From the IMG/VR virus record IMGVR_UViG_3300034108_000503, positions 1-64,000 of that record: a stretch of DNA of 64,000 nucleotides, one strand, 5' to 3'. The notes under the pieces are model-generated. The model searched no databases. It saw only the letters and a program-made list of their open reading frames with translations, and was not told the DNA's origin. Below, piece after piece: positions 26,624-57,791 of the stretch; the stretch's first letter is position 1, and each line of letters begins with the position of its first letter. The DNA is from a virus. The translations under genes were made by a program, and so were the position numbers.

Positions 26624-26637
26624 TACGCAATCATGTA
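26624..26637. promoter_or_regulatory. Operator-like near-palindrome TACGCAATCATGTA
   Basis: One of seven intergenic copies of TACG-CAA-NNN-CGTA, with one mismatch in the right arm. It lies in the 67-base gap between the helicase gene end and the start of the 79-aa gene, 41 bases upstream of that start on the minus strand. Confidence 0.5.
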
Positions 26638-26650
26638 CAAAGCGCCATGA

Positions 26651-28000
26651 CTATTTGCGCCATGCCTTCTGGGGTTTCTCCTGCTTCCTCCTTGGCGGAT
26701 CGTCGTCATCCTCGAAACGCTGGAGCGCACCATTCCGGCGGACTGCAACGCTGCGGTTGGATGCACCGAAGCGGTTCTTGAGGATCTTTATCCTCCCGGT
26801 ATCGGCAGTCTCCTCGTTTCCGTCCTCGCTTTCGTGGACATCCATGTCGATCCGAAGGAACACCTGCGGAGCATCAAGGATTGCCCTCGCGTCACGGATC
26901 ATGCCGTCGTCATTCAGTTGGACCGGAGCGATGAGCGTGCATCCCAGTTCCTTCCGCAACCTCTCTGCCGTCTCGGAGATTGTCTTGAGCATCTGATCCG
27001 CCCGCTCGCCGGAACGCTGGGCAACAGGCACAAGCTGAAGGTAGTCGATCACAATGAAGTCCAAGGGCTTCTTTCGGTGGAGGTTCCTGGCGTGGGAAGC
27101 AACGCCTTCCAGCGAGATGTACGGTGATTCGGTGTAGTGCAGATCCCATCTTCCGAGGGACTCAATGGCTTTCTGGATTCTGGTGAAGTCACCCTGTTCC
27201 CGCAGCGGGGTGCGGCCCATCACCTTGTCGAGAGGGATACCCGACTCCCGTGCCAGATCCCGCATCACGATCTGGATTGCTGACATCTCGTAGCCAACCA
27301 CGAACCCGCGCCTTCCAGCGCACGATAGTCTGCCAGCCATCTGCATCGCCAGCAGAGTCTTCCCGTGTCCCTGCTTTCCTCCGATCAGGATGTACTCCCG
27401 ACGGATCCCTCCAGCCAGCAATTCGTCCAGTCCTTTGATCCCGGTCGCGATGGCAGGATCAACGTCAGTCTCCACTCCCTGCTCGATGATGTCGATGTAG
27501 CGAAAGAGGACATCCTTGATTGGAATCAGGTTCGCGCTCCTGCTCTGGACGGTGGCGGTATCCAGTTCCCGGATCATTACTCCAACCTTTTCTCTCCAGT
27601 CATCCGGCCCATCGTAGGCGACAGCCTCCAGCCGGGACGCTATCTTTGCAACGCTACGGCGTCTGGATGCGCTCCTGACGGCTTCGCAGTATGATCGTAC
27701 CGCAGACGGCGCAGACGCTGCTGTGGCGATTTCCGAGATGGTTCCCGCGCCCCCCACGGAATCCAGCTTCTGAGCGTCAATCAGGTGGGCCGTAAGCGAG
27801 ACAGCATCCACCGGGTTTCCGTCAGCGTGGCGGGAGATGATCAGGTCGAACAGGTAGGCGCAGTGTCCGGTGACGAAGTCCGAGGACTTGATGATCTCAA
27901 TCGCCTGGTCGATGGCGTACTCCGGTGCCTGCATCAGGCAGGAGATGACTGCTCTGTCCATTTCCTCCGACCCCGGAGGCTTCTTCAGTTCATGGTTCAT
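26651..28000 (-). CDS. DnaB-type replicative DNA helicase
   Basis: The 449-residue protein has the DnaB layout: N-terminal helical domain (about 10-130), linker helix, then a RecA-like ATPase. Walker A GGKQGHGKT is at 207-215, Walker B FIVIDY at 315-320, the APVQLND sensor follows near 359, and KNRFG near 413 is the arginine-finger region. A Pro/Arg/Lys-rich tail ends the protein. It would unwind DNA ahead of the host polymerase as a hexamer. The upstream gene, 12 bases away, is an O-like replication protein that could act as initiator or loader. Confidence 0.92.
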   Translation of the reverse strand: MNHELKKPPGSEEMDRAVISCLMQAPEYAIDQAIEIIKSSDFVTGHCAYLFDLIISRHADGNPVDAVSLTAHLIDAQKLDSVGGAGTISEIATAASAPSAVRSYCEAVRSASRRRSVAKIASRLEAVAYDGPDDWREKVGVMIRELDTATVQSRSANLIPIKDVLFRYIDIIEQGVETDVDPAIATGIKGLDELLAGGIRREYILIGGKQGHGKTLLAMQMAGRLSCAGRRGFVVGYEMSAIQIVMRDLARESGIPLDKVMGRTPLREQGDFTRIQKAIESLGRWDLHYTESPYISLEGVASHARNLHRKKPLDFIVIDYLQLVPVAQRSGERADQMLKTISETAERLRKELGCTLIAPVQLNDDGMIRDARAILDAPQVFLRIDMDVHESEDGNEETADTGRIKILKNRFGASNRSVAVRRNGALQRFEDDDDPPRRKQEKPQKAWRK

Positions 28001-28012
28001 TTATTGATGTTG

Positions 28013-28939
28013 TCAGAATGGTGCCTTGATCCGCTGACGCTTCTCGTTGATCTCCACCCTCATCGTGGCAGCGACAACCTCCGCGTAGTTGAGGCAGAAG
28101 AACGACGGGTCGTGAGCTTTCGTCAAGCACCCTGGGGCATACGGTTTCGTGGATGCCTGCATCGCATCGTGGTACGCATCAAGAAATTCATCGGCAGTCC
28201 CGTTCCACCCGGCAAGGAAACGCTGGAGGACTTTGGCGAACTTTGGCGAGAACGGAAATGGTTTGCCTGTGACGTGGGTGTACGGCTGGGCGATCTGGGA
28301 AGTGATCTCATGGTGCCGGGGATCCTTGGTCTCGACCGGAGCAGTTGCTGGTCTTGCTGGTTCCTTCCGTGGAACGGAAACCTTCGCCACCACCTCGGTA
28401 TGTCCGTCAGGACCGAAGAGGAAATCTCCTTCCTCGGACTCCTTCCTCTTGTAGTTGTCTTTACTATTATCCTTATCCTTATCCTTACCTTTACTATTAC
28501 TATTACTATTACGTTGAAGGACTCCTTCAGGGACTCCTTCAAGGACTCCTTCAAGGACTCCTTCAAGGACTCCTTCAAGGACTCCTTCAAGGACTCCTTT
28601 GGATTGCACCTTGGATTTCCCACGAAGAAGACCACCCTTCTTTCCGCCTTCCCGTTTAGCCTTAACGACTTGCTCGCTCTCAATCGGGTAGCGCCACACA
28701 ATCAGGTCTCCATTCTCCCCCCAGGACCAGAGTGGGCATTGCTGGTCAACCTCGGATCGAGTCAGACCAAGAGCCAGCCACTGCCGATCAGTCCAAGAAC
28801 GTGCGTTACTGATAACTCCACCGTTCTCGTGGGTGCAGCAGTACTTCAAAAGATATAGCCAGGTCGCCCGTTGGACGGGTTCCGCGCCGATCATTTCCGG
28901 CTCTTCAAGCTGCGTGATCTTGATGTTGATCCAATTCAT
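28013..28939 (-). CDS. Replication protein O/DnaT-like, with VLEG tandem repeat
   Basis: The 308-residue protein starts with a winged-helix-like domain (WLYLLKYCCTHENGGVI, DRQWLALGLTRSEVDQ), typical of phage replication initiators and helicase loaders. The middle is low complexity: KREGGKKGG, six to seven copies of VLEG and a Lys/Asp/Asn/Ser repeat. A C-terminal domain carries FAKVLQRFLAGWNG and YAPGCLTKAHDPSFFC. Immediately upstream of DnaB, it most likely recruits the helicase to the origin. The repeat is encoded by seven 12-bp units, so copy-number changes stay in frame and would only lengthen or shorten the linker. Confidence 0.7.
   Translation of the reverse strand: MNWINIKITQLEEPEMIGAEPVQRATWLYLLKYCCTHENGGVISNARSWTDRQWLALGLTRSEVDQQCPLWSWGENGDLIVWRYPIESEQVVKAKREGGKKGGLLRGKSKVQSKGVLEGVLEGVLEGVLEGVLEGVPEGVLQRNSNSNSKGKDKDKDNSKDNYKRKESEEGDFLFGPDGHTEVVAKVSVPRKEPARPATAPVETKDPRHHEITSQIAQPYTHVTGKPFPFSPKFAKVLQRFLAGWNGTADEFLDAYHDAMQASTKPYAPGCLTKAHDPSFFCLNYAEVVAATMRVEINEKRQRIKAPF
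28517..28600. repeat. Seven tandem copies of a 12-bp repeat (AAGGACTCCTTC)
   Basis: Unit AAGGACTCCTTC occurs at 28517, 28529 (AGGGACTCCTTC), 28541, 28553, 28565, 28577 and 28589 (last ends TTT). Each unit is nearly palindromic (AAGGA-C-TCCTT) and encodes V-L-E-G on the minus strand. Next to it (about 28460-28513) is a second array of CCTTAT and ACTATT hexamers. Lambda-type initiator genes carry origin iterons inside the O gene, so an origin function is possible. Confidence 0.9.
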
Positions 28940-29137
28940 GAAAGTAAAAAACAGTAATCATTGAGTCACTGTACACGGCAACCATCAACTGCAAAGACTA
29001 AGAGAATTTCCCCTGCACCCTCTCCGGGGTGATTTTTCGACACTCCTGCCTTTCTATTTGGTGAAGGAGAACCCGGCCCACACAACAGGTGCGGGAGCGA
29101 GTGACGCAGGGGTGATCTATTCCGCAGTCTGATCGGC

Positions 29138-29974
29138 TCAGACCCCGCACATTCCTGTGCATTCGTTTCCGAACAGCGAAAGCTGCCCGCGGTCTTCCTC
29201 ACTGGAGAAATCCACGGTTTCGATGGGCTGGCAGGATTTGTGAAGAAATGGAATGCCTCGCATTGTGGTTGTCTGCTGCTTGGCTGCTTGGAATTGCTTT
29301 TCAAACGCCACGGCTGCCGCAAACGCTTCTGGCTCTTCGGTTTTAAGCCTGCGCCATTCGGCGTCGGAATGGTACGGGCAAAACACGCACGACGACCGCG
29401 GTGGCTTTGGGTATCCATTCCGCTCCATCCATGCGATGCAATCTCCGCGACGCATGCCAAGGTCAACGAGCGGCCATTTTGATTCCGTCCACGGGTCGCG
29501 GGATGGCTTCATTCTGTGGACTTCATCCAGCGAGATCCCAATCCACTGAACAACGCCCACGGTTTTCTGACCTCGTTTGATTCCGCCGAGTTCCCGAGCC
29601 TTTCGCAGAATTGGCGCAATCTTGAAGTCGTAGGTACAGGCGCGGGATGGCATCATGCCAATCTGGCCGCCCTGCCTGACGTGGCATGGGATGTTCCCGC
29701 CTGATATGATGTTGCCCGTTTTGCCAGTGTAAACCTTTGTCAGCTTATCGCTCAACCTGCCAGCCGTCACCCGGTGAATCGGGAACGGATGCGGGCTGCG
29801 CTGGATCTCTGCCTCTAGCCAGTCAAGCCAGCGGTAAACGGATGCAGGCTCATCTTGTGTGTCAGCGAAAATTGCGCCATCCAAGTGTGGATATCCGGGA
29901 ACTTCACCCCGTGCTGCCATGATAGCAAGAGTGCTGGATTGAACTCCAGCACCAAGAGAAAGAATATGTTTCAT
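29138..29974 (-). CDS. PP-loop enzyme, PAPS reductase / adenine nucleotide alpha-hydrolase-like
   Basis: From ATG 29974 the protein is 278 residues. The N-terminal PP-loop is SLGAGVQSSTL (about 6-16), followed by AIFADTQDEP, the usual second strand of this fold. Near the C-terminus is SSCVFCPYHSDAEW, the CxxC-type motif seen in phage phosphoadenosine-phosphosulfate-reductase-like proteins. The family activates a substrate with ATP; roles in sulfur transfer, or DNA or nucleotide modification, are proposed but not settled for phage members. A 198-base gap follows it and a TACGCAA near-palindrome sits 25 bases upstream. Confidence 0.75.
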   Translation of the reverse strand: MKHILSLGAGVQSSTLAIMAARGEVPGYPHLDGAIFADTQDEPASVYRWLDWLEAEIQRSPHPFPIHRVTAGRLSDKLTKVYTGKTGNIISGGNIPCHVRQGGQIGMMPSRACTYDFKIAPILRKARELGGIKRGQKTVGVVQWIGISLDEVHRMKPSRDPWTESKWPLVDLGMRRGDCIAWMERNGYPKPPRSSCVFCPYHSDAEWRRLKTEEPEAFAAAVAFEKQFQAAKQQTTTMRGIPFLHKSCQPIETVDFSSEEDRGQLSLFGNECTGMCGV

Positions 29975-29998
29975 TGAATTTATTTGCGTGATGACGTA

Positions 29999-30012
29999 TA
30001 CGCAACCCACGT
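29999..30012. promoter_or_regulatory. Operator-like near-palindrome TACGCAACCCACGT
   Basis: A degenerate copy of the TACG-CAA-NNN-CGTA motif with one extra base in the spacer. It overlaps a larger dyad TTGCGT(N10)ACGCAA at 29984-30005. It lies in the 47-base gap directly upstream of the PP-loop gene. Confidence 0.45.
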
Positions 30013-30021
30013 TTGTCTGTT

Positions 30022-30321
30022 TTACGCCGCAACCTCTTTCTTCCTGGCAGGCTTGTGCTGGCAAGTCTCCGGAGCGAACTTCTTGCGGGCCATGCTGACC
30101 GTTGTCGGCTTGATACCAAGCTGGGCGGCAATGTCAATGGTCCGCAGGGACCAATCAACAGTACTCCAGATGTGCTTCCGTGGAGGCTTCGGACCTCCGC
30201 TCTTTTTCCATCGCTGGTAGGCACCCATGTACTGCATGCCAGTTTCCTTGGCGGCAGTGGCGATGCTGGTCTTGGTCCAGTCGATTGTGGCGAAGTACTC
30301 GTCTCGTTCTTTCTTTGTCAT
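30022..30321 (-). CDS. Small DNA-binding protein with two tandem helix-turn-helix units
   Basis: The 99 residues contain two similar units: IDWTKTSIATAAKETGMQYM (about 13-32) and VDWSLRTIDIAAQLGIKPTT (about 55-74), each D-W-(T/S)-x5-IA-x-G-(I/M), a pattern typical of helix-turn-helix motifs that probe DNA. Each unit is followed by a basic segment. It could be a small regulator or nucleoid-like protein. It overlaps its upstream neighbour by ATGA; the leader is CA-rich. Confidence 0.6.
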   Translation of the reverse strand: MTKKERDEYFATIDWTKTSIATAAKETGMQYMGAYQRWKKSGGPKPPRKHIWSTVDWSLRTIDIAAQLGIKPTTVSMARKKFAPETCQHKPARKKEVAA

Positions 30322-30785
30322 GGGGTTGGTGGTTTGGGTGATTCTTTCTTGAGAGACGCCAGATAAATCCAGTGGTTCCTCACTCTGTCCGCCACGAGGT
30401 CAGTCGCTTCTGCCAGCTTCTTCTCTGCTTCTTCTGCGGCCCATGGTTTCCATTTCTCAAGTGCCTCCTCTAAGTTGTTCCTGATGTCGTACTGCGGATA
30501 CAGCATTTTCTCCGCATCAATCAGCATGAATGGACCCTTTAGGTTCCGAGTCCTGCGAATGAAATCCAAGTCTGCGCAGGATGCTTGAAACCCGGTGGTT
30601 CCTAGCTTTGATGCGACGTACTGAAAAGCCGCAACGGCAGCAAGGCTCATTGCGTAAGCGCAGGAACCATAATCGTGCGGGCGCTCAACGAGTGAATTGA
30701 TGTACTGCTGGAGTTGATCTAGCGAATCAAACCAAGGTGCTTCTTGGTTTTTTATTTCTTGTTCTGGTGTGGTTTCTTGTTCCAT
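30318..30785 (-). CDS. Conserved phage protein, unknown
   Basis: A 155-residue protein with a helical N-terminus (SLDQLQQYINSLVERPHDYG), a conserved-looking core (CAYAMSLAAVAAFQYVASKL, CADLDFIRRTRNLKGPFMLI) and a helical Lys/Glu-rich tail. I have seen this core in other phages without an assigned function. The leader before the ATG is CCAAACCACCAAATAT, CA-rich with no Shine-Dalgarno sequence. Confidence 0.7.
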   Translation of the reverse strand: MEQETTPEQEIKNQEAPWFDSLDQLQQYINSLVERPHDYGSCAYAMSLAAVAAFQYVASKLGTTGFQASCADLDFIRRTRNLKGPFMLIDAEKMLYPQYDIRNNLEEALEKWKPWAAEEAEKKLAEATDLVADRVRNHWIYLASLKKESPKPPTP

Positions 30786-30809
30786 ATATTTGGTGGTTTG
30801 GGTGATTCT

Positions 30810-31091
30810 TCAGACGACCTCCAGCCACTCGGTGACGCTTAGTCCTTGGGCTTTCCACTCGGCTGCTTGTTTTTCGTCATGGGTTGGATGACCACACGTC
30901 TGCCACATCCTGCGCGGCTCTGGCTTGATGCGAAATGTATCTGGATCGCTACCGCTACCCATGTCAGGGCCAATAAGCTCGGCTACTGGTATGTCCTGCC
31001 ATTTTTGTTGGAAGAATTCCTGCGCGGTCTTTCCTGCCGCCACAGCGCCGTAAAACTCGGCGAGCCATTTCGCTTTTTCGATTGGTGTCAT
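30810..31091 (-). CDS. Small protein, unknown (93 aa)
   Basis: Helical N-terminus (IEKAKWLAEFYGAVAAGKTA), central Gly/Asp/Pro region and a C-terminus with MWQTCGHPTHDEKQAAEW. The Cys and His could bind metal. The leader is CA-rich. Genes on both sides are co-directional with gaps of about 25 bases. No family recognised. Confidence 0.6.
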   Translation of the reverse strand: MTPIEKAKWLAEFYGAVAAGKTAQEFFQQKWQDIPVAELIGPDMGSGSDPDTFRIKPEPRRMWQTCGHPTHDEKQAAEWKAQGLSVTEWLEVV

Positions 31092-31115
31092 GTCTTTGGT
31101 TTTGGTTTGTGTGAT

Positions 31116-31544
31116 TCAGATGTATGTCCTTCGATTGTACTCAGCAATAAGCAAAGCATCCGCGATTGCGTGTGTCACCTTGATGTCCGGGAACAACCGC
31201 TGTGCCGCCGCCTTGGAGACGTTTTTGTCCCCCTTGGTCATGCAGCCGAGGAACTTCTGCCACTTCGCCGGGGTGATGAATTGGTACGGGATCTTCGCCG
31301 CGCACAGTGCCATCTGGAGCTTCCCGAAGCCCTCGCCAAAGGTGAAGGTCGATGTCACTCCCTGCCCCGGCATGGCGTGAACCTTCTCAAGCAGGGCGAA
31401 TCTTGGACTTCCGAGTGGACAGATGCTGTTGAGTAAATCCAGCAAGTCAGCGTCATCCGCTGGCATCTTGAACGCCTTGGCTCCGGATGGACTGATCACT
31501 GCGATGCCTCCGCTTTTCCCTGGGTCGATTCCGATGTAGTTCAT
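31116..31544 (-). CDS. RuvC-like crossover junction endodeoxyribonuclease
   Basis: The 142-residue protein has the RNase H-like fold signature of RuvC: IGIDPGKSGG with catalytic Asp7, LLEKVHAMPGQG with Glu53, TFTFGEGFGKLQMAL, the ITPAKWQKF segment and HAIADALLIAEY with His125 and Asp129. It resolves Holliday junctions formed during replication and recombination before packaging. It overlaps its upstream gene by ATGA and lies in the recombination cluster with an exonuclease. Confidence 0.9.
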   Translation of the reverse strand: MNYIGIDPGKSGGIAVISPSGAKAFKMPADDADLLDLLNSICPLGSPRFALLEKVHAMPGQGVTSTFTFGEGFGKLQMALCAAKIPYQFITPAKWQKFLGCMTKGDKNVSKAAAQRLFPDIKVTHAIADALLIAEYNRRTYI

Positions 31545-31762
31545 TCTGGTATTTCTTCCGATTGTGATTTGTTTACAATGACAAATTTCCCATTCGCTGC
31601 CTTCGTGATCATGTCGTTCCGGTCAGGGTCGTACCCATCCTGATCCGGAGCGATGGAGATGAACTGCACCACGGCACCCTGCCGCAGCACGGTCGTCGCA
31701 CTCGGATCTCCGATGCTCGCCCATAGCGGGTAGTGTCCAGTCTCAAGGATTTTCAGGCGCAT
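31541..31762 (-). CDS. Small protein, unknown (73 aa)
   Basis: From ATG 31762: a short beta-rich protein (LKILETGHYPLWASI, GAVVQFISIAPDQDGYDPDR, ANGKFVIVNKS). The longer upstream frame is a shadow of the exonuclease gene. Starts four bases after the exonuclease stop and overlaps the resolvase start by ATGA, so it is probably co-translated with both. Confidence 0.6.
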   Translation of the reverse strand: MRLKILETGHYPLWASIGDPSATTVLRQGAVVQFISIAPDQDGYDPDRNDMITKAANGKFVIVNKSQSEEIPE

Positions 31763-31766
31763 GGAT

Positions 31767-32561: not shown

Positions 32562-32566
32562 GCCGT

Positions 32567-33572: not shown

Positions 33573-33583
33573 GGCGGTACTCG

Positions 33584-33901: not shown

Positions 33902-33925
33902 ATCTCAATTCAAAAGAAAAAGGTA

Positions 33926-34021: not shown

Positions 34022-34028
34022 AATCGTT

Positions 34029-39412: not shown

Positions 39413-39802
39413 TCAGGCTTCAAAATTGGAGATGCTGGTGATAACACAGGTGACATCGCTCTCGGGAACCTCGGTATTCTCGCCATCGGCGAATACCTCG
39501 ACAGCTTTGGCGACCCATTCGCAGTGGCGGAAATCGGGATGATCCCGGTTCTGGCGAGCGTCGAACTGCATGCGGGCGATGCATTCCTCGCGAGACTCGT
39601 AGGTTCCGAGTTCGATGATGTTTGCGTGCTGGTGCAGTTCCAGGGAATAGATAATCCCGGTGGCAGGCACCTGTTCGACGGTGTACTCGGTTTCCGCGCA
39701 GATGGCGGAAACGATCTCCTCATGTGAGGAGCATGGAGTCTGCTCCCCGTCTGGGTGCGTGAGCAGAAAGAGGCTGGCTTTCGGAAGGACGAATTGTTTC
39801 AT
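39413..39802 (-). CDS. Unknown protein (129 aa)
   Basis: From ATG 39802: MKQFVLPKASLFLLTHPDGE, EEIVSAICAETEYTVEQVPA, YESREECIARMQFDARQNRD. Cys and acidic residues, no clear motif. The much longer frame to 40171 reads through the leader and is unlikely. Leader is CA-rich (AACCAAACACAAACCA). Confidence 0.65.
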   Translation of the reverse strand: MKQFVLPKASLFLLTHPDGEQTPCSSHEEIVSAICAETEYTVEQVPATGIIYSLELHQHANIIELGTYESREECIARMQFDARQNRDHPDFRHCEWVAKAVEVFADGENTEVPESDVTCVITSISNFEA

Positions 39803-39836: not shown

Positions 39837-40067
39837 TCAGCATGCGAGGCAGTTCCGGGGAATAGAGAGACCCATGCGGAGGGCGTGAAACACGTCACCA
39901 GAGTGACGAATCGGGATACTGATTGGACCAACCTCGCCGTTGCGGGGATACTCAACCACTCCGGTTGAGTGCCGATCATTGGGATATGTGGTGAGAGCGA
40001 CTCCGCTCGGGAACGTGTGCGTGACTTGCCCCCGTTCATCGGTGGTGGTAATGATTGAGTCTTCCAT
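39837..40067 (-). CDS. Small protein, unknown (76 aa)
   Basis: Beta-rich small protein (IITTTDERGQVTHTFPSGVA, GDVFHALRMGLSIPR). It is the first gene downstream of the 385-base non-coding stretch and of a TACGCAA near-palindrome 85 bases upstream. The leader is a long run of AAACC and CAAACC units. Confidence 0.6.
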   Translation of the reverse strand: MEDSIITTTDERGQVTHTFPSGVALTTYPNDRHSTGVVEYPRNGEVGPISIPIRHSGDVFHALRMGLSIPRNCLAC

Positions 40068-40151: not shown

Positions 40152-40165
40152 TACGCAAACACGGA
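40152..40165. promoter_or_regulatory. Operator-like near-palindrome TACGCAAACACGGA
   Basis: Copy of the TACG-CAA-NNN-CGTA motif with one mismatch. Eighty-five bases upstream of the minus-strand gene at 40067, next to a promoter-like GTGGAAC...TCGCGTTTACTT (40109-40132, minus strand). Confidence 0.5.
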
Positions 40166-42291: not shown

Positions 42292-42630
42292 TTAATCCTC
42301 ATAGCCTTCAAATGCTGAAAAGCAGGATTGAAAGTATGCCAGCGATTCCGGCTCGAAGCAATTCTCTCTCACGGAGTCGTCCGCGTTGCACTCCGCATTG
42401 CATGCGGCGTGGAAATCCCGCAGCCGATCAGGCTGATCCCATCCCTCCCCGGTAGCGGAATCGTAAACCTCCCGCCACCGTTTCCGCGTCCGGTCGAAGA
42501 TATCCCCGAGAATGCTGATTTTCTCCAGATCAGTCTCCTGATCAGGATCAAACCCATAAGGGTATGCCTTCCGGCTGGCGGCATAGAATTCGTCTGAGCG
42601 AATCCACCGTTCTGCTTGTCTTTTAGTCAT
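42292..42630 (-). CDS. Unknown acidic protein (112 aa)
   Basis: From ATG 42630: MTKRQAERWIRSDEFYAASR, FDPDQETDLEKISILGDIFD, RLRDFHAACNAECNADDSVR. Acidic with four cysteines. The first gene downstream of the promoter/operator region at 42.69-42.82 kb on the minus strand, with a long leader of 57 or 160 bases. Confidence 0.65.
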   Translation of the reverse strand: MTKRQAERWIRSDEFYAASRKAYPYGFDPDQETDLEKISILGDIFDRTRKRWREVYDSATGEGWDQPDRLRDFHAACNAECNADDSVRENCFEPESLAYFQSCFSAFEGYED

Positions 42631-42686
42631 TTGCTTGTCGTGAGTAGGTTTTACGGTTCCGCGCATCATGCGCTTCCCCGGTGCAA

Positions 42687-42715
42687 GGTATCGGTGAAAG
42701 TCTGATTTATGTCAA
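42687..42715 (-). promoter_or_regulatory. Sigma70-like promoter P-a (TTGACA, 17 bp, GATACC)
   Basis: The minus-strand -35 TTGACA (42710-42715) and a weak -10 GATACC (42687-42692) with 17 bp between. The block GCTTGACA...CTTTCACC is shared with the promoter before 57850. Directly downstream of the operator-like TACG-N6-CGTA, so binding there would probably affect it. Drives the 42630 gene. Confidence 0.5.
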
Positions 42716-42718
42716 GCC

Positions 42719-42732
42719 TACGCAATCACGTA
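42719..42732. promoter_or_regulatory. Operator-like palindrome TACGCAATCACGTA
   Basis: A perfect TACG-N6-CGTA dyad, one of three perfect copies. It lies between two promoter-like sequences and upstream of the gene at 42630. Confidence 0.55.
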
Positions 42733-42792
42733 GAACAGTGTAATGCGTTGTATTTCAACGGTTGAGAGATGTTCTTTTTCTTTCTAGTACAA

Positions 42793-42821
42793 GTAATATA
42801 CGCGAATGCGGGTTTTGTCAA
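42793..42821 (-). promoter_or_regulatory. Sigma70-like promoter P-b (TTGACA, 17 bp, TATTAC)
   Basis: On the minus strand: -35 TTGACA (42816-42821), 17 bp, -10 TATTAC (42793-42798; a TATATT at 15 bp spacing overlaps). The 10-mer TTACTTGTAC over the -10 is repeated exactly at 54751-54760 on the plus strand. Confidence 0.6.
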
Positions 42822-43508
42822 TGGCAAAGGTAAATCAGTCGCAACCCGTTGAAACAGAAGAGCCTGACAAAGAGTGAAACCGCGAAATGGCACGGAAAAG
42901 CGGAGGCGAGAAAATGAACCGATGGACGGCAGAACCCGCAGAACCGTGATTCACTGAGTCCACTCACTGATTCCACTCAATTCCCGCGCAATTGACGGAC
43001 AGGAGGAAACCCCGGAACCCCAGCCCGAAGCGGCAACCTGAGCAACCCGGAGCGGACACGGTGCCGGAAGCAGAGAAGCGGAAGGACAGAAGCGGAAGCG
43101 GACAGAAGAACGGATGGAAACGCTTCCCCGGAATGACGCTGGCGAGGTTCTGAAACCATCCCGCCCAGCTACCCTCCTATGGTCTCGCCTCCCCCGGCCC
43201 AGCATCGCGCTCCTGGTCTGCATCAGATCGATTCCCCAGCCCTCGCCATGACAGTCCCGCGCCGCATCGGCTGATCATTCCCCGGCATGATCAAGAGCCG
43301 GAAACGGAAAGATTACGGGGTGGATTTTGCATGACGGTTATTAAATCAAGTTATGACCTCACCGGAAAAGCCCGATTTCCCCCAGTGCGAGCGGCAGCGG
43401 ATCGGGATTCTGACGGGCAGGCAAGCCCCGCAGATGACAGGCCTAGACGCTGGCAAGGAGGGGGTGGGAGAGAGTGCAGGCCCGCGCAGAGGTGGGGAGG
43501 GACCACCA

Positions 43509-43528
43509 GGGGTGGGGGAGGGGAGGGG
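43509..43528 (+). other. G-quadruplex motif
   Basis: Four runs of four to five G with single-base loops: GGGG-T-GGGGG-A-GGGG-A-GGGG. An AT-rich TTTATATATA box follows within 15 bases. Such a sequence can form a very stable four-stranded structure on the plus strand. Confidence 0.85.
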
Positions 43529-43692
43529 CGCTGCGCCGTGATCATTTATATATACCCCCCTCTTCAAAAAATTCTCATCACTGGATCTCTGGTGTTACTA
43601 CAGTCCATTTGAAAAAATTCCTCCTTCGCTGACACCCTCCTTTTGGTCCCTCTCTTTGGACTCCTTTTTGTTTTGATCCCTGTGACAGTGGG

Positions 43693-43729
43693 AAGAGCCA
43701 CGGGAGTTGTTGATTCTCCGGTGGCTCTT
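43693..43729. terminator. Hairpin after the 175-aa gene
   Basis: Nine-bp stem AAGAGCCAC/GTGGCTCTT extended by GGAG/CTCC around one mismatch, loop TTGTTGATT. It lies 28 bases past the stop of the minus-strand gene at 43758. The T-tract is short on both strands, so termination is probable but not certain. Confidence 0.5.
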
Positions 43730-43757
43730 TGGGGTGGTGGTTGGTGTGGGTGTCTTC

Positions 43758-44285
43758 TTACGCCTGCGGTGGTTCTCCTGTACCTCCGTGATTGGATTCG
43801 GCTACTGGTTTCGGTGGTTGCGGCTGATGTGCTGCTGTGGTGATTGCGTGGAGGGCGTCTGAGAGGTTGAGGATGGCGAGGGTGTCTTCCTGTTTTGGGA
43901 TGGTGAGTTCCTCACTGGATGCCGTGTAGAACTCCTTGTCTGCGATGTTCCTGATGAGATTGAGCTTTGCGAGGAGTGCGCCGATGATGGTGGTGACTTC
44001 TGTCTGTGGGAGTTCGATGAAGCTGTCAAAGCCTGCTTCGATTCTCTGAGTGACGGTGAAGAATCCGAGGATGGACTCTGTGATTTCTGTGGTTCGTGCT
44101 GTGTTTCTGGAGATTGTCTGTTCCAGGAACTGGATATGTGGATCCTGGCTATCGATTGACTTGCGGATCCTGATTTCGTTTTGGGTTTGCTGGCTGTCGT
44201 AGTCCTTCTGGTTTCTGAGGTCCAGGAGGGTATCTGTGATTGTTTTTGCCTGTGCTGCTGTGAATTGGATGGTGTATGTATTCAT
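43758..44285 (-). CDS. Helical protein, unknown (175 aa)
   Basis: Gln/Thr/Ile-rich, mostly helical (MNTYTIQFTAAQAKTITDTL, FLEQTISRNTARTTEITESI), with a disordered Pro/Gln tail. DNA in this gene and the next few is unusually G/T-rich on the plus strand, meaning strong C/A bias in the coding strand, different from the left part of the region. No family. Confidence 0.65.
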   Translation of the reverse strand: MNTYTIQFTAAQAKTITDTLLDLRNQKDYDSQQTQNEIRIRKSIDSQDPHIQFLEQTISRNTARTTEITESILGFFTVTQRIEAGFDSFIELPQTEVTTIIGALLAKLNLIRNIADKEFYTASSEELTIPKQEDTLAILNLSDALHAITTAAHQPQPPKPVAESNHGGTGEPPQA

Positions 44286-48419: not shown

Positions 48420-48782
48420 TTATTTTCGTTTTGCATATGCGCGTGTGGTTCTGTGGAACTGGTGCTGACTGGTCCAGCCTTTCTTCTCGACGGCTTCGAT
48501 GAACGCCTTGAGCGGACAGAAGAAGAGCGCTGGTGGGACGGCAAGGGCTTCAGCGATACGCAAGACTGTATCCACCCTGGTGTTCACGGCCCCTCGTTCT
48601 GCGGATGAGAGGGTGTTGATGTGGATTCCTGCTTTCTCGCAGATGGTTTCCGGGGTGACCGGGAACTTCGTGCCGTCCTTTGAGGACGTTGCCATTCTGA
48701 TCCAGCGGATCCTTTGGTTCCACGTCTCGGCATCCTTGGCTGGGAAGGAGTAGTCCTTCGGCGGTTTTGGTTTGCGTGGCAT
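48420..48782 (-). CDS. Cro/C1-type (XRE) helix-turn-helix regulator
   Basis: From ATG 48782 (120 residues) the protein has PVTPETICEKAGIHINTLSS (the helix-turn-helix, about 46-65), then VLRIAEALAVPPALFFCPL, the usual fourth and fifth helices. XRE proteins bind near-palindromic DNA as dimers. This is the only such regulator in the window. The operator-like TACG-N6-CGTA sites could be its targets; that link is inferred. Confidence 0.8.
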   Translation of the reverse strand: MPRKPKPPKDYSFPAKDAETWNQRIRWIRMATSSKDGTKFPVTPETICEKAGIHINTLSSAERGAVNTRVDTVLRIAEALAVPPALFFCPLKAFIEAVEKKGWTSQHQFHRTTRAYAKRK

Positions 48783-48783
48783 A

Positions 48784-49808: not shown

Positions 49809-49883
49809 ATTGTTTATTCTAGTGCTGCTTTGATGACACATCCACGCTCATCCACGCCAGTATCCCGGCAAGGAGATTCAGTT

Positions 49884-49897
49884 TACGCAAACAGGTA
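49884..49897. promoter_or_regulatory. Operator-like near-palindrome TACGCAAACAGGTA
   Basis: Copy of the seven-site motif with one mismatch. In the 94-base gap between the 58-aa membrane gene and the gene starting at 49808. Confidence 0.5.
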
Positions 49898-49902
49898 GAC
49901 GG

Positions 49903-50321: not shown

Positions 50322-50331
50322 GATCTCTGGA

Positions 50332-50487: not shown

Positions 50488-50489
50488 GT

Positions 50490-51159: not shown

Positions 51160-51161
51160 TA

Positions 51162-52125: not shown

Positions 52126-52144
52126 GGTGTCTGTTGGGTTGTGA

Positions 52145-52627: not shown

Positions 52628-53436
52628 ACGGCTACCTTTCCTTTGATTGCTGGATGCGGATCGTACCCGACAAGGTCGAAGTCCTCAAACTCAAAGCTGT
52701 CGATGTCCCAGTGGCGACCGTGGATCGCAAGAATCGGGGGAGCCTTGATTGGTCGCGAGATCTGCTCCCTGACTTGGTCGTAGTGGTTGCTGTAGATGTG
52801 GGCATCTCCCACGCTGATCGTAAGGATCCCCGGTGTCAGTCCGGTGATGTGAGCCACCATGTGCGTCAGCAGGGCGTAGCTGGCAATGTTGAACGGCATC
52901 CCGAGGAACATGTCGGCAGACCGCTGCGTCAGCATGCAGTCCAGACGATTGCCTGAGCGCACCGAGAACTGGTAGAGCATGTGGCATGGAGGCAGTGCCA
53001 TCTTTGGGATATCGACTGGATTCCATGCGCTCACAATGATCCGGCGGGAATACCGATCCTGCTCAATGAGGCGGATTGCTTCCTTCAACTGGTCGATCCC
53101 CTCCTTGCCCCAGTTCCTCCACTGCTTGCCGTACACCGGGCCGAGTTCTCCATCGGTCGATGCCCACTCGTCCCATATGGAGACTCCGTGCTTCTGTAGA
53201 TCCACGATGTTGGTGCTTCCGGAGATGAACCACAGGAGTTCGTGGACCACGGACTTCATGTGGACTTTCTTCGTGGTGAGGAGCGGGAATCCTTTGGAAA
53301 GATCAAACTTCATCATTTCCCCAAAGATGCTGGACGTTCCCGTGCCAGTGCGGTCATATCGTTTTTCTCCGTAATTCAGGATATTACTGATTGCGTTGAT
53401 GTACTCTTCTTCGTTCGATGTATCAAGTCTGTTCAT
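52624..53436 (-). CDS. thyA: Thymidylate synthase
   Basis: The 270-residue ThyA has RYDRTGTGTSSIFGEMMKFD (phosphate-binding Arg), WDEWA, the catalytic Cys151 in MALPPCHMLYQF, the QRSADMFLGMPFNIASYALL segment and the conserved C-terminus (IKGKVAV). It makes dTMP and dihydrofolate from dUMP, supporting phage DNA synthesis. It lies between a zinc-binding gene and DHFR. Confidence 0.96.
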   Translation of the reverse strand: MNRLDTSNEEEYINAISNILNYGEKRYDRTGTGTSSIFGEMMKFDLSKGFPLLTTKKVHMKSVVHELLWFISGSTNIVDLQKHGVSIWDEWASTDGELGPVYGKQWRNWGKEGIDQLKEAIRLIEQDRYSRRIIVSAWNPVDIPKMALPPCHMLYQFSVRSGNRLDCMLTQRSADMFLGMPFNIASYALLTHMVAHITGLTPGILTISVGDAHIYSNHYDQVREQISRPIKAPPILAIHGRHWDIDSFEFEDFDLVGYDPHPAIKGKVAV

Positions 53437-53774
53437 TTTTTTGCTGAGTTGAATCCAGCGACATACGCACGAATCATGTCGTTCATGTGCTTTTTGTCTG
53501 CTGGTTTCATGATTACCATCGGAGGAAGCACGTTCTCCCGATACCAGATCTCTGCCTCGGCTTCGATGTTTCCATCAGCAGCTTCGCTTCCAAGTCTCTC
53601 CATCAGGAGATCCTCGTCTTGGTTCCCGCACCGTTCGCAGCACTCCACGGGATGTGCTTCGGTGTTCCAGCACACGTCGCACTGGTAGAGAACTCCCGAG
53701 TCGCATCCGCATGGTCCTTCCATGTACTTCCCTGGACCCTGGGAGCAGACATGGCATTTCACTAGGTGATTCAT
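53433..53774 (-). CDS. Cys-rich zinc-binding protein (113 aa)
   Basis: The N-terminal half has eight cysteines: KCHVCSQGPGKYMEGPCGCD, YQCDVCWNTEAHPVECCERC. They can form two zinc ribbons like DnaJ or RING-type folds. The C-terminal half is helical (DKKHMNDMIRAYVAGFNSAK). Coupled by ATGA to thyA. Function unknown. Confidence 0.65.
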   Translation of the reverse strand: MNHLVKCHVCSQGPGKYMEGPCGCDSGVLYQCDVCWNTEAHPVECCERCGNQDEDLLMERLGSEAADGNIEAEAEIWYRENVLPPMVIMKPADKKHMNDMIRAYVAGFNSAKK

Positions 53775-53977
53775 GCGATTCGCGTGAGGTGTGCGTACTT
53801 GGTATTCCTGCCGCCATTGTAGACCTGATTGCAGCGCATGCAGCGTTCACGCTTCTGCCACTCCTTCCAGCTACAGTGCTTCGTGGGCCATATCTTCTCC
53901 CGGCAGTCAATGCAGTGATGGATCGCGTGATCCCTCCAGCCGACTGGCGGTTTCTCCAGTGATCGGTCGATCTTCAT
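53771..53977 (-). CDS. Small zinc-finger protein (68 aa)
   Basis: HHCIDCREKIWPTKHCSWKE followed by RERCMRCNQVY: C-x2-C-x4-WP-x2-H...W...R-x2-C-x2-C. The protein at 56595 on the opposite strand has the same pattern, so they look like paralogues. Possibly nucleic-acid binding. ATGA overlaps at both ends. Confidence 0.65.
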   Translation of the reverse strand: MKIDRSLEKPPVGWRDHAIHHCIDCREKIWPTKHCSWKEWQKRERCMRCNQVYNGGRNTKYAHLTRIA

Positions 53978-54534
53978 TCGGCTCCAGTGGCTGAGTTCTT
54001 CTTCCAGTCCCGCTTCGACACGATGGACTCCCAGGTCTCAATGATCGTGGCAGTCAGATCAACGCCAACCTTGTTCGCTACCCGGTAGACCAGCGCCATG
54101 AAGTCGGTGATCTGATACCGGACGGCATCCACGAAGACCGCATCCTCAATGCTCATCAGGTACGCAACCTGAAGGTGCTTTACCCCGCAGGTCAGCCGGA
54201 TCAGTTCCGTCTCGGTCGAGTGTTCGCTGACGTAGCTGTTCTCAGCACGCAGAAGGACATCCACGAACCGGACCCCTGCCTTCGTGCAGAAGTGCATAAG
54301 GTAGATGGACACGTCAGCCAGAGCATCGCGCATGTTCGCCTGATGTTCCTCCGGGGTGCCACGGATTCCCTGCTTCCGCTTCAGGAATGAGTGGGAGAAC
54401 TCACCGATCTCCTCAATCACTCCGAGGACCGGGTCGATCTGGTTCTCGGCAGTATTCGCGCCGAAGTTCTGGAAAGCCCACTCCTTGTGCTGGTCCTGGA
54501 CTTCGTTGATTTTCGCAATGGTTTCCGATGTCAT
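53974..54534 (-). CDS. MazG-like nucleotide pyrophosphohydrolase
   Basis: The 186 residues include the MazG helix pair: VLGVIEEIGEFSHSF (EEIGE about 41-45) and MRDALADVSIYLMHF (D70 and D74), the metal-binding acidic residues with Asp replacing Glu at one point. MazG enzymes hydrolyse nucleoside triphosphates or alarmones. It heads the thyA-folA cluster, consistent with nucleotide-pool control. Longer than minimal MazG, with a helical C-terminal half. Confidence 0.75.
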   Translation of the reverse strand: MTSETIAKINEVQDQHKEWAFQNFGANTAENQIDPVLGVIEEIGEFSHSFLKRKQGIRGTPEEHQANMRDALADVSIYLMHFCTKAGVRFVDVLLRAENSYVSEHSTETELIRLTCGVKHLQVAYLMSIEDAVFVDAVRYQITDFMALVYRVANKVGVDLTATIIETWESIVSKRDWKKNSATGAE

Positions 54535-54539
54535 ATTCT

Positions 54540-54674
54540 TCAGTCTCTGATGTAACTGCTTTGCGCTTCGGCCCGCATGATTGCGGAACTGAGCTTCATT
54601 CCGAAGTAGAACACAATGGACATCAGTATCACAAGGATGCCAATCACGACTTTTTCAATAGGAGTCATTTTCAT
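54540..54674 (-). CDS. Short membrane protein (44 aa)
   Basis: From ATG 54674: MKMTPIEKVVIGILVILMSI, hydrophobic to about residue 28, then SSAIMRAEAQSSYIRD. First gene of the minus-strand early region, directly downstream of the divergent promoter region. The 127-codon frame above it reads through the promoter and the opposite gene and is rejected. Confidence 0.6.
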   Translation of the reverse strand: MKMTPIEKVVIGILVILMSIVFYFGMKLSSAIMRAEAQSSYIRD

Positions 54675-54714
54675 GAGGAGGCACCAGTCCGGCAGGATGA
54701 AGAAAAATGCAATG

Positions 54715-54728
54715 TACGGTTTTGCGTA
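54715..54728. promoter_or_regulatory. Operator-like palindrome TACGGTTTTGCGTA
   Basis: A perfect TACG-N6-CGTA dyad in the 91-base gap between divergent genes (54674 minus, 54766 plus). On the minus strand it reads TACGCAAAACCGTA. It may control both directions. Confidence 0.6.
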
Positions 54729-54740
54729 TTTGCGCTGAAA

Positions 54741-54760
54741 GTGGAATCGTTTACTTGTAC
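54741..54760 (+). promoter_or_regulatory. Promoter-like box GTGGAATCGTTTACTTGTAC
   Basis: TTACTTGTAC (54751-54760) is repeated exactly over the -10 of the promoter at 42.79 kb (minus strand), and GTGGAA...TCG..TTTACTT recurs at 40109-40132 (minus strand). If TTTACT is a -10, transcription would start within a few bases of the ATG at 54766, giving a nearly leaderless mRNA. Confidence 0.45.
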
Positions 54761-54765
54761 GGCCT

Positions 54766-55149
54766 ATGCAAGATACACCAAAACCTGATCGTGAGTCCGT
54801 TCTGAAAGAAGCCGAGAAGGCACTTCTGGCAATCAATGATGCCGGATACCACGCTGCCATCGTCGTCGTGGACAATGACAAGAAGGCGGCATGCCTGATT
54901 GGCATGTCCGAGATGAGTGGCACCCGTGCCGATTACATCGGCAAATGCTTTGAGATTCTGATCCGCATGGGGGAAACCATCAACGACAAGATCCCCGATA
55001 CGATGGACGAGATCTTCCTGCAAGCCTGCGATGGTGACAAGGAGAAAGCCGCAGAAGCCCAGCAGATCTTCAAGGAGTGCATTGCCGAAACCCTCGCCGA
55101 GATGGCAATCGGCAATGTTGAGCAGACCGAGAACCAAACCAATAACTGA
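54766..55149 (+). CDS. Unknown protein (127 aa)
   Basis: First gene of the rightward block. Alpha/beta: ESVLKEAEKALLAINDAGYH, AIVVVDNDKKAACLIGMSEM, then an acidic helical C-terminus (KEKAAEAQQIFKECIAETL). Ends with Gln/Asn-rich residues. No family recognised. Confidence 0.65.
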   Translation: MQDTPKPDRESVLKEAEKALLAINDAGYHAAIVVVDNDKKAACLIGMSEMSGTRADYIGKCFEILIRMGETINDKIPDTMDEIFLQACDGDKEKAAEAQQIFKECIAETLAEMAIGNVEQTENQTNN

Positions 55150-55159
55150 TTTAGAACCA

Positions 55160-55660
55160 ATGAAAAAAGGAAGAAAGACAACTGAAGAGAAGCTCAAGAA
55201 AGGGCAGGATGCATGGATCCGCGAGAACCTCATCGAGGTTGGCGGGGTCATCTACAAGAAAGCATGCGTCATCGGAGGGAAATACCCATCCGTGCGTATC
55301 CCAGGAAAAACAGTCCGGGTTTCAAAACTCGTCTGGGCGATCCACAATGAAGGCAAGGTTCCCGATGCCCACGTCTGGCACAAGGACGGCGATGTCGAGA
55401 ACAACATCATCAGCAATCTGGACATCGGAACCAAGCCGATCAGCAGAAATCTGATGGTTGAATACAAGAAGCGGATCGCTGAAGGCAAGGACTACCCAGG
55501 GGTCACATGGCACAAGTCGCATGAAAAGTGGATGGCATGGTGGCGCGGACCAAACAAGACCACCATCTACATCGGTCACCACGCCACCGAGAGGGATGCA
55601 GCAGATGCCGTGAAGGAATACTGCGAGAAGAACTGCCCGCAGGACAACCCATACGCCTGA
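55160..55660 (+). CDS. HNH endonuclease with C-terminal AP2 DNA-binding domain
   Basis: From ATG 55160 (166 residues): a basic start, the HNH-type core VSKLVWAIHNEGKVPDAHVW, HKDGDVENNIISNLDIGTK, and then PGVTWHKSHEKWMAWW with IYIGHHATERDAADAVKEYC, matching the AP2 DNA-binding fold. HNH-AP2 proteins are phage homing-type nucleases. It lies between two ordinary genes. The N-terminal Lys-rich tail may add DNA binding. Confidence 0.85.
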   Translation: MKKGRKTTEEKLKKGQDAWIRENLIEVGGVIYKKACVIGGKYPSVRIPGKTVRVSKLVWAIHNEGKVPDAHVWHKDGDVENNIISNLDIGTKPISRNLMVEYKKRIAEGKDYPGVTWHKSHEKWMAWWRGPNKTTIYIGHHATERDAADAVKEYCEKNCPQDNPYA

Positions 55661-55673
55661 CCATCAACCCGCT

Positions 55674-56435
55674 ATGGCATACATCGAAACATCCATCCCT
55701 CCCATGAAGGTCTTCGTCCGGAGATCCTTCCTTAATGGGAACATTGACGACAAGTCCTACGAACAGGCAGTCCTGATCTCAGTCCGCTGCCTTGAAGGTT
55801 CCGCTGCCCTTTTCCAGATCCTCACGGAGACCGGGAGAATGCGGGACAAGCTGCCACTCTCGGCGTTCTGCTGGAAGATCCCTGACTCCGAGGATGTCTG
55901 GGAGAAGTATCCATTTCACAGTCTCCAGCTTTGGGACTGCTTCAGCCGGGACTTCTCAATCGTCCAGTTGTCCTACGTCTACAACTGCCGCACCACCATC
56001 CTCATGAAGGACAGGTCTCAACTTGAGGGGCAGTACCAGTGGACCATCCAGTGGGCCGGAAACACCAACCTCGGAGGCGCAGACATCACGCTGGCTGAAG
56101 ATGGATCTGAGCATAAGTGCCACCACTTCATCCGGCTGGACAACGGTCTGTTCGCTCTCCAGCCAAACAACCGGATCCTGAAGTGGAATGAGCCTTCCTT
56201 CTGCACCAAGCCCATCGGCAAGGATGAAGCCCCATGGGTGGTCAACGAAGCCGAGTATTGCTGCGAACAGCACGAAAAGTGGACGACCGAGGACTCAAGG
56301 TCGTACTTCTACGAACTCGCAAAGAAGATGGAAGAAGAAGGACCGCTTCCTGAGATCCCTGAGACTGTTTCGTTTGTTTCGTTTGAGCGTGACATCAGCA
56401 AACCAGAAGAGCTGAAAGAAGCGGCAGGCATCTGA
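55674..56435 (+). CDS. Conserved phage protein near terminase (253 aa)
   Basis: A pattern familiar from many phages: FQILTETGRMRDKLPLSAFC, LQLWDCFSRDFSIVQLSYVY, YQWTIQWAG, DGSEHKCHHFIRLDNGLFAL, QPNNRILKWNEPSF. Function unknown. Often near packaging genes. It is followed by a good terminator, so it ends the first rightward transcript. Confidence 0.75.
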   Translation: MAYIETSIPPMKVFVRRSFLNGNIDDKSYEQAVLISVRCLEGSAALFQILTETGRMRDKLPLSAFCWKIPDSEDVWEKYPFHSLQLWDCFSRDFSIVQLSYVYNCRTTILMKDRSQLEGQYQWTIQWAGNTNLGGADITLAEDGSEHKCHHFIRLDNGLFALQPNNRILKWNEPSFCTKPIGKDEAPWVVNEAEYCCEQHEKWTTEDSRSYFYELAKKMEEEGPLPEIPETVSFVSFERDISKPEELKEAAGI

Positions 56436-56512
56436 ATGAATGATCAGGGTGAGATCGTGCCTCCTCCGTATCCCAAAGGGGAATTCTGACCACCACCAGA
56501 AACAACGCAGGG

Positions 56513-56549
56513 CCGCTCCTCGGGATCACCTCTCAGGGAGCGGTCTTTT
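56513..56549 (+). terminator. Rho-independent terminator
   Basis: Stem CCGCTCC/GGAGCGG (56513-56519 with 56537-56543) enclosing an 17-base loop, then TCTTTT. It lies 78 bases after the 253-aa gene. Good T-tract on the plus strand. Confidence 0.8.
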
Positions 56550-56594
56550 CACGTTTGATAATCATCCGCCCCCGCAGTACAGCCATGCCCCACG

Positions 56595-56786
56595 ATGCCG
56601 AAGGGGTTCAAAGTATGTCCGCCAAACTGGAAAGAGGAAGCAGTCAAAGTCTGCATCTTCTGCGGCGAGAACTTCTGGCCCAGCACCCACAGCCACTACC
56701 TCTCCTGGATCAAACGCCAGCACTGCGACCAGAAATGCTCGAAACGCCACGAACAGGCAATCAAGACTGGTTCACGGAAACCTTGA
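56595..56786 (+). CDS. Small zinc-finger protein (63 aa), paralogue of 53771-53977
   Basis: VKVCIFCGENFWPSTHSHYL followed by WIKRQHCDQKCSKRHEQ: C-x2-C...WP-x2-H...W...R-x2-C-x3-C. The same pattern as the 68-aa protein on the opposite strand, so the two probably arose by duplication. It lies after the terminator, so it needs its own promoter. Function unknown. Confidence 0.65.
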   Translation: MPKGFKVCPPNWKEEAVKVCIFCGENFWPSTHSHYLSWIKRQHCDQKCSKRHEQAIKTGSRKP

Positions 56787-57128
56787 GATCAGGATCCACG
56801 CAGGCACAGGCTTCATCCTGAAGATACCTCCCGAGTCCGTACCAGCACCGAGGACATGCGTTGTGCGGACATGCCGCACTCCCTCTCCGGTTTCTGTCTT
56901 TCGTCTCAGTCTTCGGTTTCGTTGAGGTCTCTGGATCCATTCAAGCGACCTACGATTCCCGTTGACGATCCGCAAGCACTTCGCATTGTTCCGTCGATTG
57001 CATCTGAACAGTAACCGAAGCCGGGTTCATTCCGCGTGTTGCTGTGGAGGCAAACATAACGCTCGCCCTAGTGCCATACGGGGCGAAGCCAAAAGCAAGA
57101 CGGTGAGCAGTAATGATCACCCGAAGCG

Positions 57129-57174
57129 GAAACCCCCGGATGTCTTCATGACAGCGGGGGTTTCTTTTGTTCTT
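57129..57174 (+). terminator. Rho-independent terminator
   Basis: Perfect 10-bp stem GAAACCCCCG/CGGGGGTTTC (57129-57138 with 57155-57164), followed by TTTTGTTCTT. Strong T-tract on the plus strand, 14 or so bases past the stop of a coding-like fragment. Confidence 0.85.
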
Positions 57175-57483
57175 GGATCTCTCGCTCTTCATTCTCTGAT
57201 TCCTACAGGGAGAGGCAAACTTCCGACAACGCGAGCGAGGATCGAAGGCACGATGATCCCTGCGAAGGGAATCATCATGCTCAGAGAGGAGACTTCCGCA
57301 TAACGGTCGCTCGGATCCTGAGTCACGCCGGAAACAAATCCGGACCAGGATTCTCGCCAGCAGGCACGCTCATCGGACTGGCTCAAGTGAATCCCGGCAT
57401 TGACCCCAGCATTGCTGCTGGCGCGTCTTACGTCACACTGATTCATCTGTCCATGTGACTGCCTGGAACCCCACCGATCACTC

Positions 57484-57506
57484 CCCAGTTCTCAGGCTGG
57501 GCTTTT
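57484..57506 (+). terminator. Weak terminator-like hairpin
   Basis: Five-bp stem CCCAG/CTGGG (57484-57488 with 57497-57501), loop of eight bases, followed by CTTTT. It lies 26 bases after the stop of a coding-like fragment at 57456. Weaker than the neighbouring ones. Confidence 0.4.
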
Positions 57507-57584
57507 CGGCTGTCAGCAGGAGGGTCTGCCGAACGTCCGGAATCTTTTCCCTTCGCCACTCGCTTAACGGTATCAGCGCAAAGA

Positions 57585-57619
57585 AAAACCCCGGCGGGTA
57601 AGAGGACCACCGGGGTTTT
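57585..57619 (+). terminator. Hairpin, probable terminator
   Basis: Perfect 10-bp stem AAAACCCCGG/CCGGGGTTTT (57585-57594 with 57610-57619), 15-base loop. The T-run is inside the stem arm (GTTTTC), as in many bidirectional terminators. It separates the fragments on the left from the promoter of the 155-aa gene. Confidence 0.65.
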
Positions 57620-57777
57620 CGTTGAGACTTGCCTTTCGGCTAATCACGAAGAAATCTCTCAGCGTTGCCTCTTACACAACGTCGGTCGTACCGTTATGCA
57701 CAGGAGGCAGCGAGTCAAGAGTTTTCTGTCGCGCTCCTTCAATCGTCCAGCATCACATCGAATCAATGTATTCCTGA

Positions 57778-57791
57778 TACGCAAAAACGTA
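57778..57791. promoter_or_regulatory. Operator-like palindrome TACGCAAAAACGTA
   Basis: A perfect TACG-N6-CGTA dyad, four bases upstream of the TTGACA -35 of the promoter for the gene at 57850. A bound protein would contact the promoter. Confidence 0.6.

What the first reader, a model, noticed from the sequence alone, without database searches (positions are those of the whole stretch)
26624..57791. Seven intergenic copies of a TACG-CAA-NNN-CGTA near-palindrome
Three perfect TACG-N6-CGTA dyads (42719, 54715, 57778) and four near-matches (26624, 29999, 40152, 49884) were found, all in intergenic gaps and all within about 25-110 bases upstream of a start codon. Six copies keep CAA (or TTG on the other strand) in the spacer. 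Three lie beside or between promoter-like sequences. A 14-base palindrome with 4-bp arms is a common operator shape for Cro/C1-type dimers, and a single XRE-type regulator is encoded at 48420. That pairing is inference.
Basis: partly seen in the sequence, partly recalled or inferred. Interest (0 to 1): 0.85.

Follow-up and report, generated by a model that had tools for sequence, protein, structure and literature searches.

The report
Phage-wide palindromic operator at promoters
A short mirror-image DNA word sits in front of many transcription units of this unclassified lake phage and of its distant relatives, and is most likely the landing site of one phage gene-control protein, a familiar kind of switch with a new recognition sequence.

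Summary
The motif is real. The three exact dyads alone would not stand out in this genome. In the window's record plus two relatives with about 68% identical portal and TerL proteins, TACG-N6-CGTA is the most intergenic of 2,816 palindromes tested (16 intergenic, 3 coding; next best 6). The seventh place, 49884, ranks 12th. Sites recur upstream of orthologous genes. They lie just upstream of a predicted -35 box (centre about -42) or between -35 and -10, as for CI/Cro-like dimers. The binding factor is unproven. But its recognition helix does not resemble the relatives', and the host is unknown. In passing: a roughly 540-nt structured RNA lies just upstream of site 57778, with two hypervariable but always complementary 8-nt hairpin loops and no Rfam match.

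The parts
26624..26637 (+). operator-like site TACGCAATCATGTA, upstream of the minus-strand gene run 26583->24888; also present in close relatives G011-G014
   Evidence: score 13.7
   Evidence: score 12.1
40152..40165 (+). operator-like site TACGCAAACACGGA, upstream of genes 39837-40067 / 39413-39802
   Evidence: score 12.7
42719..42732 (+). exact site TACGCAATCACGTA; on the minus strand a TTGACA -35 box starts 3 bp beyond it; upstream of 42292-42669
   Evidence: (14.1)
   Evidence: (score 15.7)
49884..49897 (+). weakest accepted site, TACGCAAACAGGTA; heads the minus-strand gene run 49808->48420 whose last gene is the XRE regulator
   Evidence: score 10.3
54715..54728 (-). exact site TACGCAAAACCGTA between divergent genes 54674 (-) and 54766 (+)
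   Evidence: 17.8
57778..57791 (+). exact site TACGCAAAAACGTA, 4 bp upstream of a TTGACA -35 box; precedes gene 57850-58317 and the terminase large subunit; a site is conserved at this place in all relatives checked
   Evidence: (17.9)
48420..48782 (-). XRE-type HTH protein, 120 aa, candidate regulator (Pfam HTH_3, 27 bits, above cut-off)

Best explanation
The palindrome, consensus (CAAA)TACG[C/T]N4[A/G]CGTA(TTTG), is the operator of one dimeric, phage-encoded helix-turn-helix regulator that coordinates many transcription units of a so far unclassified phage group. The dimer would bind the two TACG arms on one face of the DNA. Where the site lies between -35 and -10 it would block RNA polymerase; where it abuts the -35 box (centre about -42) it could repress or, like lambda CI at PRM, help polymerase. 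Shown here: the motif, its intergenic enrichment, its conservation upstream of orthologous genes and its position relative to predicted promoters. Inferred: that a protein binds it, that this protein is the XRE-type regulator, and the direction of regulation.
For: TACG-N6-CGTA is the most intergenic of 2,816 arm/spacer combinations in G000+G008+G010 (16 intergenic, 3 coding, about 2.3 copies expected in all; binomial p 1.1e-12, about 3e-9 after correction). A matrix from relatives only: top 7 of 7 hits in G000 are intergenic, 9% of the DNA being intergenic (p 5.6e-8). 7 of 25 transcription-unit heads have a site within 150 bp, against 2.3% of random windows. Same place upstream of orthologous genes: the 57850 gene in all loci checked, gene 29138 in G000 and G002, portal and 64420-type structural genes among relatives. 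Predicted -35 boxes start at +15 or a little beyond from the motif start, or at -10 to -2. Relatives have a pair of sites 25 bp apart in a divergent promoter region beside the lysis genes. An XRE gene is the last gene of a site-headed run in G000, G002, G005, G006, G008 and G010. The G008 XRE protein matches 434 repressor best among solved structures, weakly (E 0.03).
Against: No protein-DNA evidence. XRE recognition helices differ: GIHINTLSSAERG in G000, GCTDGVISKIEHG in G005/G008, EANDDLVRKIENG in G002/G006 and DCRDDLVRRIENG in G010, while the motif stays the same. Among relatives the residues at 434 positions 28 (D) and 33 (K/R) are kept, but not in G000. Portal and 64420-gene promoters of G000 lack the site their orthologs have. 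Promoter predictions use E. coli hexamers for an unknown host and their mean score is only modestly above shuffles (6.9 against 5.8). Structure models of the XRE proteins have low confidence and gave no useful match.
Confidence: 0.55

Rival explanations
1. The palindrome is part of the phage promoters themselves: a box for a phage activator that redirects host RNA polymerase, as T4 MotA does at middle promoters, so that it marks promoters to be switched on.
For: Five sites have a -35-like box starting exactly 15 bases from the motif start, and the gene-proximal half-site is better conserved. Several relatives' promoters look like copies of one cassette.
Against: Spacing to the -35 box is not fixed. 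In the portal, 5939-gene and 42799 promoters the motif overlaps the -35/-10 spacer, where an ordinary activator would not sit. Both orientations of the asymmetric CAA occur.
Confidence: 0.2
2. The sites are bound by a host transcription factor, and the phage has copied the host operator to tie its genes to host physiology.
For: The motif is unchanged while the phage XRE recognition helix varies. The geometry with AAA/TTT flanks also fits other dimeric regulators.
Against: The host is unknown and no host genome could be searched. A host factor commanding this many phage operons, including packaging and lysis genes, would be unusual.
Confidence: 0.15
3. The sites serve DNA maintenance (partition sites, a modification or packaging recognition sequence) rather than transcription.
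For: Scattered palindromes also occur in plasmid-phage partition systems (general knowledge).
Against: Sites are upstream of genes and next to predicted promoters. No ParA/ParB-like protein was seen in the part of the family search that was displayed.
Confidence: 0.04
4. Chance recurrence of a short palindrome.
For: In the window's genome alone three exact copies are not exceptional among all palindromes.
Against: Enrichment in independent relatives, the cross-trained matrix and positional conservation.
Confidence: 0.01

Closest known systems
434 phage operators (bound by 434 CI and Cro, XRE family)
   Same: 14-bp dyad with two 4-bp arms and a 6-bp spacer; single and closely paired sites at promoters resemble lambdoid operators (general knowledge).
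   Different: Arm sequence TACG instead of ACAA; sites are spread over many transcription units rather than two operator regions; binding untested.
Stoperators of cluster A mycobacteriophages (L5, Bxb1; PMC6550527)
   Same: One repressor-type motif repeated across a phage genome.
   Different: Stoperators are 13-bp sites, mostly not promoter-associated, predominantly oriented with transcription, and the motif drifts with the repressor. Here the motif is palindromic, lies next to predicted promoters, occurs in both orientations, and stays constant while the candidate regulator's helix changes.
T4 MotA boxes (middle promoters; general knowledge)
   Same: A repeated phage motif near -35 of many promoters.
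   Different: MotA boxes are not dyads and sit at a fixed distance from -10; these sites are dyads with variable placement.

Membership tests
CI/Cro-type (XRE) operator system | dyad-symmetric site with arms one helical turn apart | tested here: met
   TACG-N6-CGTA, arm centres 10 bp apart, symmetric AAA/TTT flanks
CI/Cro-type (XRE) operator system | sites overlap or abut promoters | tested here: inconclusive
   bimodal placement around predicted -35 boxes, but by E. coli consensus scan only, with scores modestly above shuffles and an unknown host
CI/Cro-type (XRE) operator system | phage encodes an XRE-type HTH regulator | tested here: met
   HTH_3 hit above cut-off in G000; orthologous XRE proteins in five relatives
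CI/Cro-type (XRE) operator system | that regulator binds the site | not testable with these tools
   no binding data; recognition helices not conserved between G000 and relatives
CI/Cro-type (XRE) operator system | the regulator gene is under the control of a site (autoregulation) | tested here: inconclusive
   site-headed gene runs end in the XRE gene in six genomes, but site-headed runs are common in this genome
Mycobacteriophage stoperators | asymmetric site, mostly outside promoters, oriented with transcription | tested here: not met
   symmetric motif, both orientations, upstream of genes
MotA-type activator box | fixed distance to the -10 element | tested here: not met
   bimodal, variable offsets in predicted promoters

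The most novel reading that the evidence does not exclude
One small XRE-type protein acts as a dual regulator of most of an otherwise uncharacterised phage genome. It represses where its palindrome lies between -35 and -10 and activates where the palindrome abuts the -35 box, and in some relatives it also controls the promoter region of a large structured phage RNA with hypervariable kissing loops.
Probability: 0.2. Interest if true: 0.6.

Novelty: new member of a known kind. Interest (0 to 1): 0.4.

Why it matters
It gives a first regulatory map for a phage group with no isolate and no match in the annotated phage collection beyond a faint terminase similarity. It supplies an exact recognition sequence that can be tested with one protein and one oligonucleotide. 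If the same regulator binds in all relatives despite altered recognition helices, it would also be a case for studying how XRE specificity is encoded.

Tried and rejected
Chance: rejected by the cross-trained scan and the relatives. Site 48557 inside the XRE gene: low matrix score, treated as chance. Site 29999: replaced by 29985. Known motif in the literature: no listed paper holds TACGNNNNNNCGTA, TACG-N6-CGTA or TACGN6CGTA; the hits listed for TACGCAA concern unrelated topics. Host search through the portal and TerL proteins in bacterial genomes: nothing. Close phage isolates: none. Relatives of the window's XRE in viral contigs: none. Phage RNA polymerase in the 4,907-aa protein: not recognised; helicase and large-polyvalent-protein domains instead. 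XRE structure models: low confidence, fold search uninformative. I first took the helix differences among relatives as excluding XRE, then softened this because D28 and K/R33 are kept among them and the XRE genes are distal in site-headed runs. A MAFFT alignment of the hairpin loops alone was too gapped to use; the loop pairing rests.

Full report
What the record is. The window is bases 1-64000 of a 72,271-base virus record from IMG/VR, GC about 0.54. It encodes a DnaB helicase, thymidylate synthase, a terminase large subunit and a 4,907-aa polyvalent protein. There is no match to annotated phages by DNA, none for the 64420-66009 structural protein, and only one faint terminase match. Close relatives (95-100% identical DnaB) and a more distant group (about 66-69% identical portal and TerL) exist as viral contigs. 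I use G002, G005, G006, G008 and G010 as the distant group. G002, G005, G006 and G008 share many sites with one another, so the statistics use G000, G008 and G010 only. No host was found.

Observation. Exact dyads at 42719, 54715 and 57778 and one-mismatch copies at 26624, 40152 and 49884 are present. The copy at 29999 is out of register; 29985 is the near-match. Twenty matches with up to one mismatch compare with 6.2 in shuffles.

Is it more than chance? I called genes with a simple codon-usage script of my own, so coding boundaries are approximate. In G000 alone three exact intergenic copies tie with another palindrome. Over G000, G008 and G010, TACG-N6-CGTA has 16 intergenic and 3 coding copies, far ahead of the next palindrome (6 intergenic) among 2,816 arm/spacer combinations. 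About 2.3 copies in all are expected; the binomial p is 1.1e-12, about 3e-9 after correction. A 22-bp symmetric matrix built from relatives only, scanned over G000, gives as its top seven hits 57778, 54715, 42799, 42719, 26624, 40152 and 29985. All are intergenic, in a genome that is 9% intergenic (p 5.6e-8). Eight of the 12 hits scoring at least 10 by its table are intergenic. In G000 seven of 25 transcription-unit heads carry a site within 150 bp, against 2.3% of random windows. The first row is an artefact of an empty window and is left out, although the printed total of 8 of 26 includes it; two of the seven are the divergent pair that shares site 54715.

Conservation in place. Upstream of the 57850-gene orthologs a site is present in all 14 sequences compared, G000 included, as TACGCAAAAACGTA in G000 and L019 and TCCGCATTCACGTA or TCCGCATTCGCGTA in the others. 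The 29138-gene ortholog in G002 (75% identical) has a site too. Portal, 64420-gene and 5939-gene orthologs have sites in relatives but not in G000, so the set of controlled promoters has shifted.

Anatomy. Gene-oriented alignment of 34 sites gives TACG[C/T]N4[A/G]CGTA with symmetric flanking C.AA and TTTG, the gene-proximal half better conserved. A scan with E. coli sigma-70 hexamers puts the best -35 box mostly at +15 or a little beyond from the motif start (site centre about -42 and upstream) or at -10 to -2 (site overlapping the spacer). Both placements fit a dimeric repressor that may also activate. The promoter scores exceed shuffles only modestly and 21 of 33 sites exceed their own shuffle mean, so individual assignments are tentative. 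Relatives carry two sites 25 bp apart in a divergent region beside a predicted lysis gene.

Which protein? Pfam and PHROG scans of 80 G000 proteins and 89 from G008 and G010 show an XRE-type regulator as the main recognisable transcription factor; only the first 25 families are displayed for some of these scans. The relatives' XRE proteins are 70-95% identical to the G008 protein, which matches 434 repressor best among solved structures, weakly. They sit last in gene runs headed by a site. G000's XRE is last in the run headed by 49884. It shares 24-27% identity with them, including the N-terminal MPRK..KD stretch and the TK.P.T insertion (hhalign P 4.5e-4). The recognition-helix residues differ. 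I rate XRE binding in G000 as plausible but unproven, a little under even odds, within a larger confidence that some phage-encoded dimeric regulator binds.

Side finding. Directly upstream of site 57778, at about 57190-57725 in G000, and at the same place in 13 other loci, lies a non-coding stretch of about 540 nt that looks like a structured RNA. RNAalifold on seven relatives gives 132 pairs, 37 with compensatory double changes. G000 folds better than shuffles (z -2.9 for 536 nt, -4.05 for 991 nt). Two hairpins near its 3' end carry 8-nt loops that differ between phages yet are complementary 8 of 8 in five distinct versions: GTAAGAGG/CCTCTTAC, TGTAGGAC/GTCCTACA, AAGGGACG/CGTCCCTT, CTGAGGGG/CCCCTCAG and CTAGAGAC/GTCTCTAG. 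Cross-pairings give mostly 2-5, with single cases of 6 and 7. The first two versions come from phages whose TerL proteins are 98% identical (G000 and L019). The loop pairs were picked by eye before they were counted. No Rfam family matches. Kissing loops between RNA copies help build the GOLLD and ROOL cages (PMC12286853); whether this RNA does anything similar is unknown. It deserves its own study.

Noticed in passing
window 57190-57725 (+), and loci L008, L010, L018, L019, L020, L045, L046, L047, L048, L049, L050, L051, L052: Probable new structured RNA of about 540 nt just upstream of the 57850-gene/terminase, with two hairpins whose 8-nt loops are hypervariable but always complementary (five distinct versions); no Rfam match. 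Resembles in style the kissing loops of GOLLD/ROOL RNAs.
   Followed up: partly
L026:9059-9337, L026:9348-9560 (G008 28559-29060) and G010 15812-16299: Small proteins ending in PEP-CTERM-like sorting signals (VPEPSSPIVLLTAAGAVLLMRR), unexpected in a phage, hinting at a host with an exosortase such as Verrucomicrobiota or Planctomycetota (inference; Pfam PEP-CTERM weak).
   Followed up: no
G008 (51.9 kb) intergenic DNA, e.g. around 42400-43800: A second enriched word, CACAATC / CAATCGC (CAATCGC: 16 intergenic, 25 coding in 12% intergenic DNA), downstream of several palindromes; perhaps a promoter element or second operator.
   Followed up: no
window 9193-23916 (+): 4,907-aa polyvalent protein with helicase, LPD23 and possible metallopeptidase domains.
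   Followed up: partly
window record, right end 72064-72271: The record stops inside an endolysin-like gene; in relatives the XRE gene lies next to the endolysin, so a second, closer XRE ortholog could lie just off the end of this record.
   Followed up: partly
window 60254-60300, and the 64169-64420 gap: Portal and 64420-gene promoter regions of G000 carry other palindromes (ACATCA-N4-TGATGT and ATGTG-N6-CACAT) where relatives have TACG-N6-CGTA.
   Followed up: no
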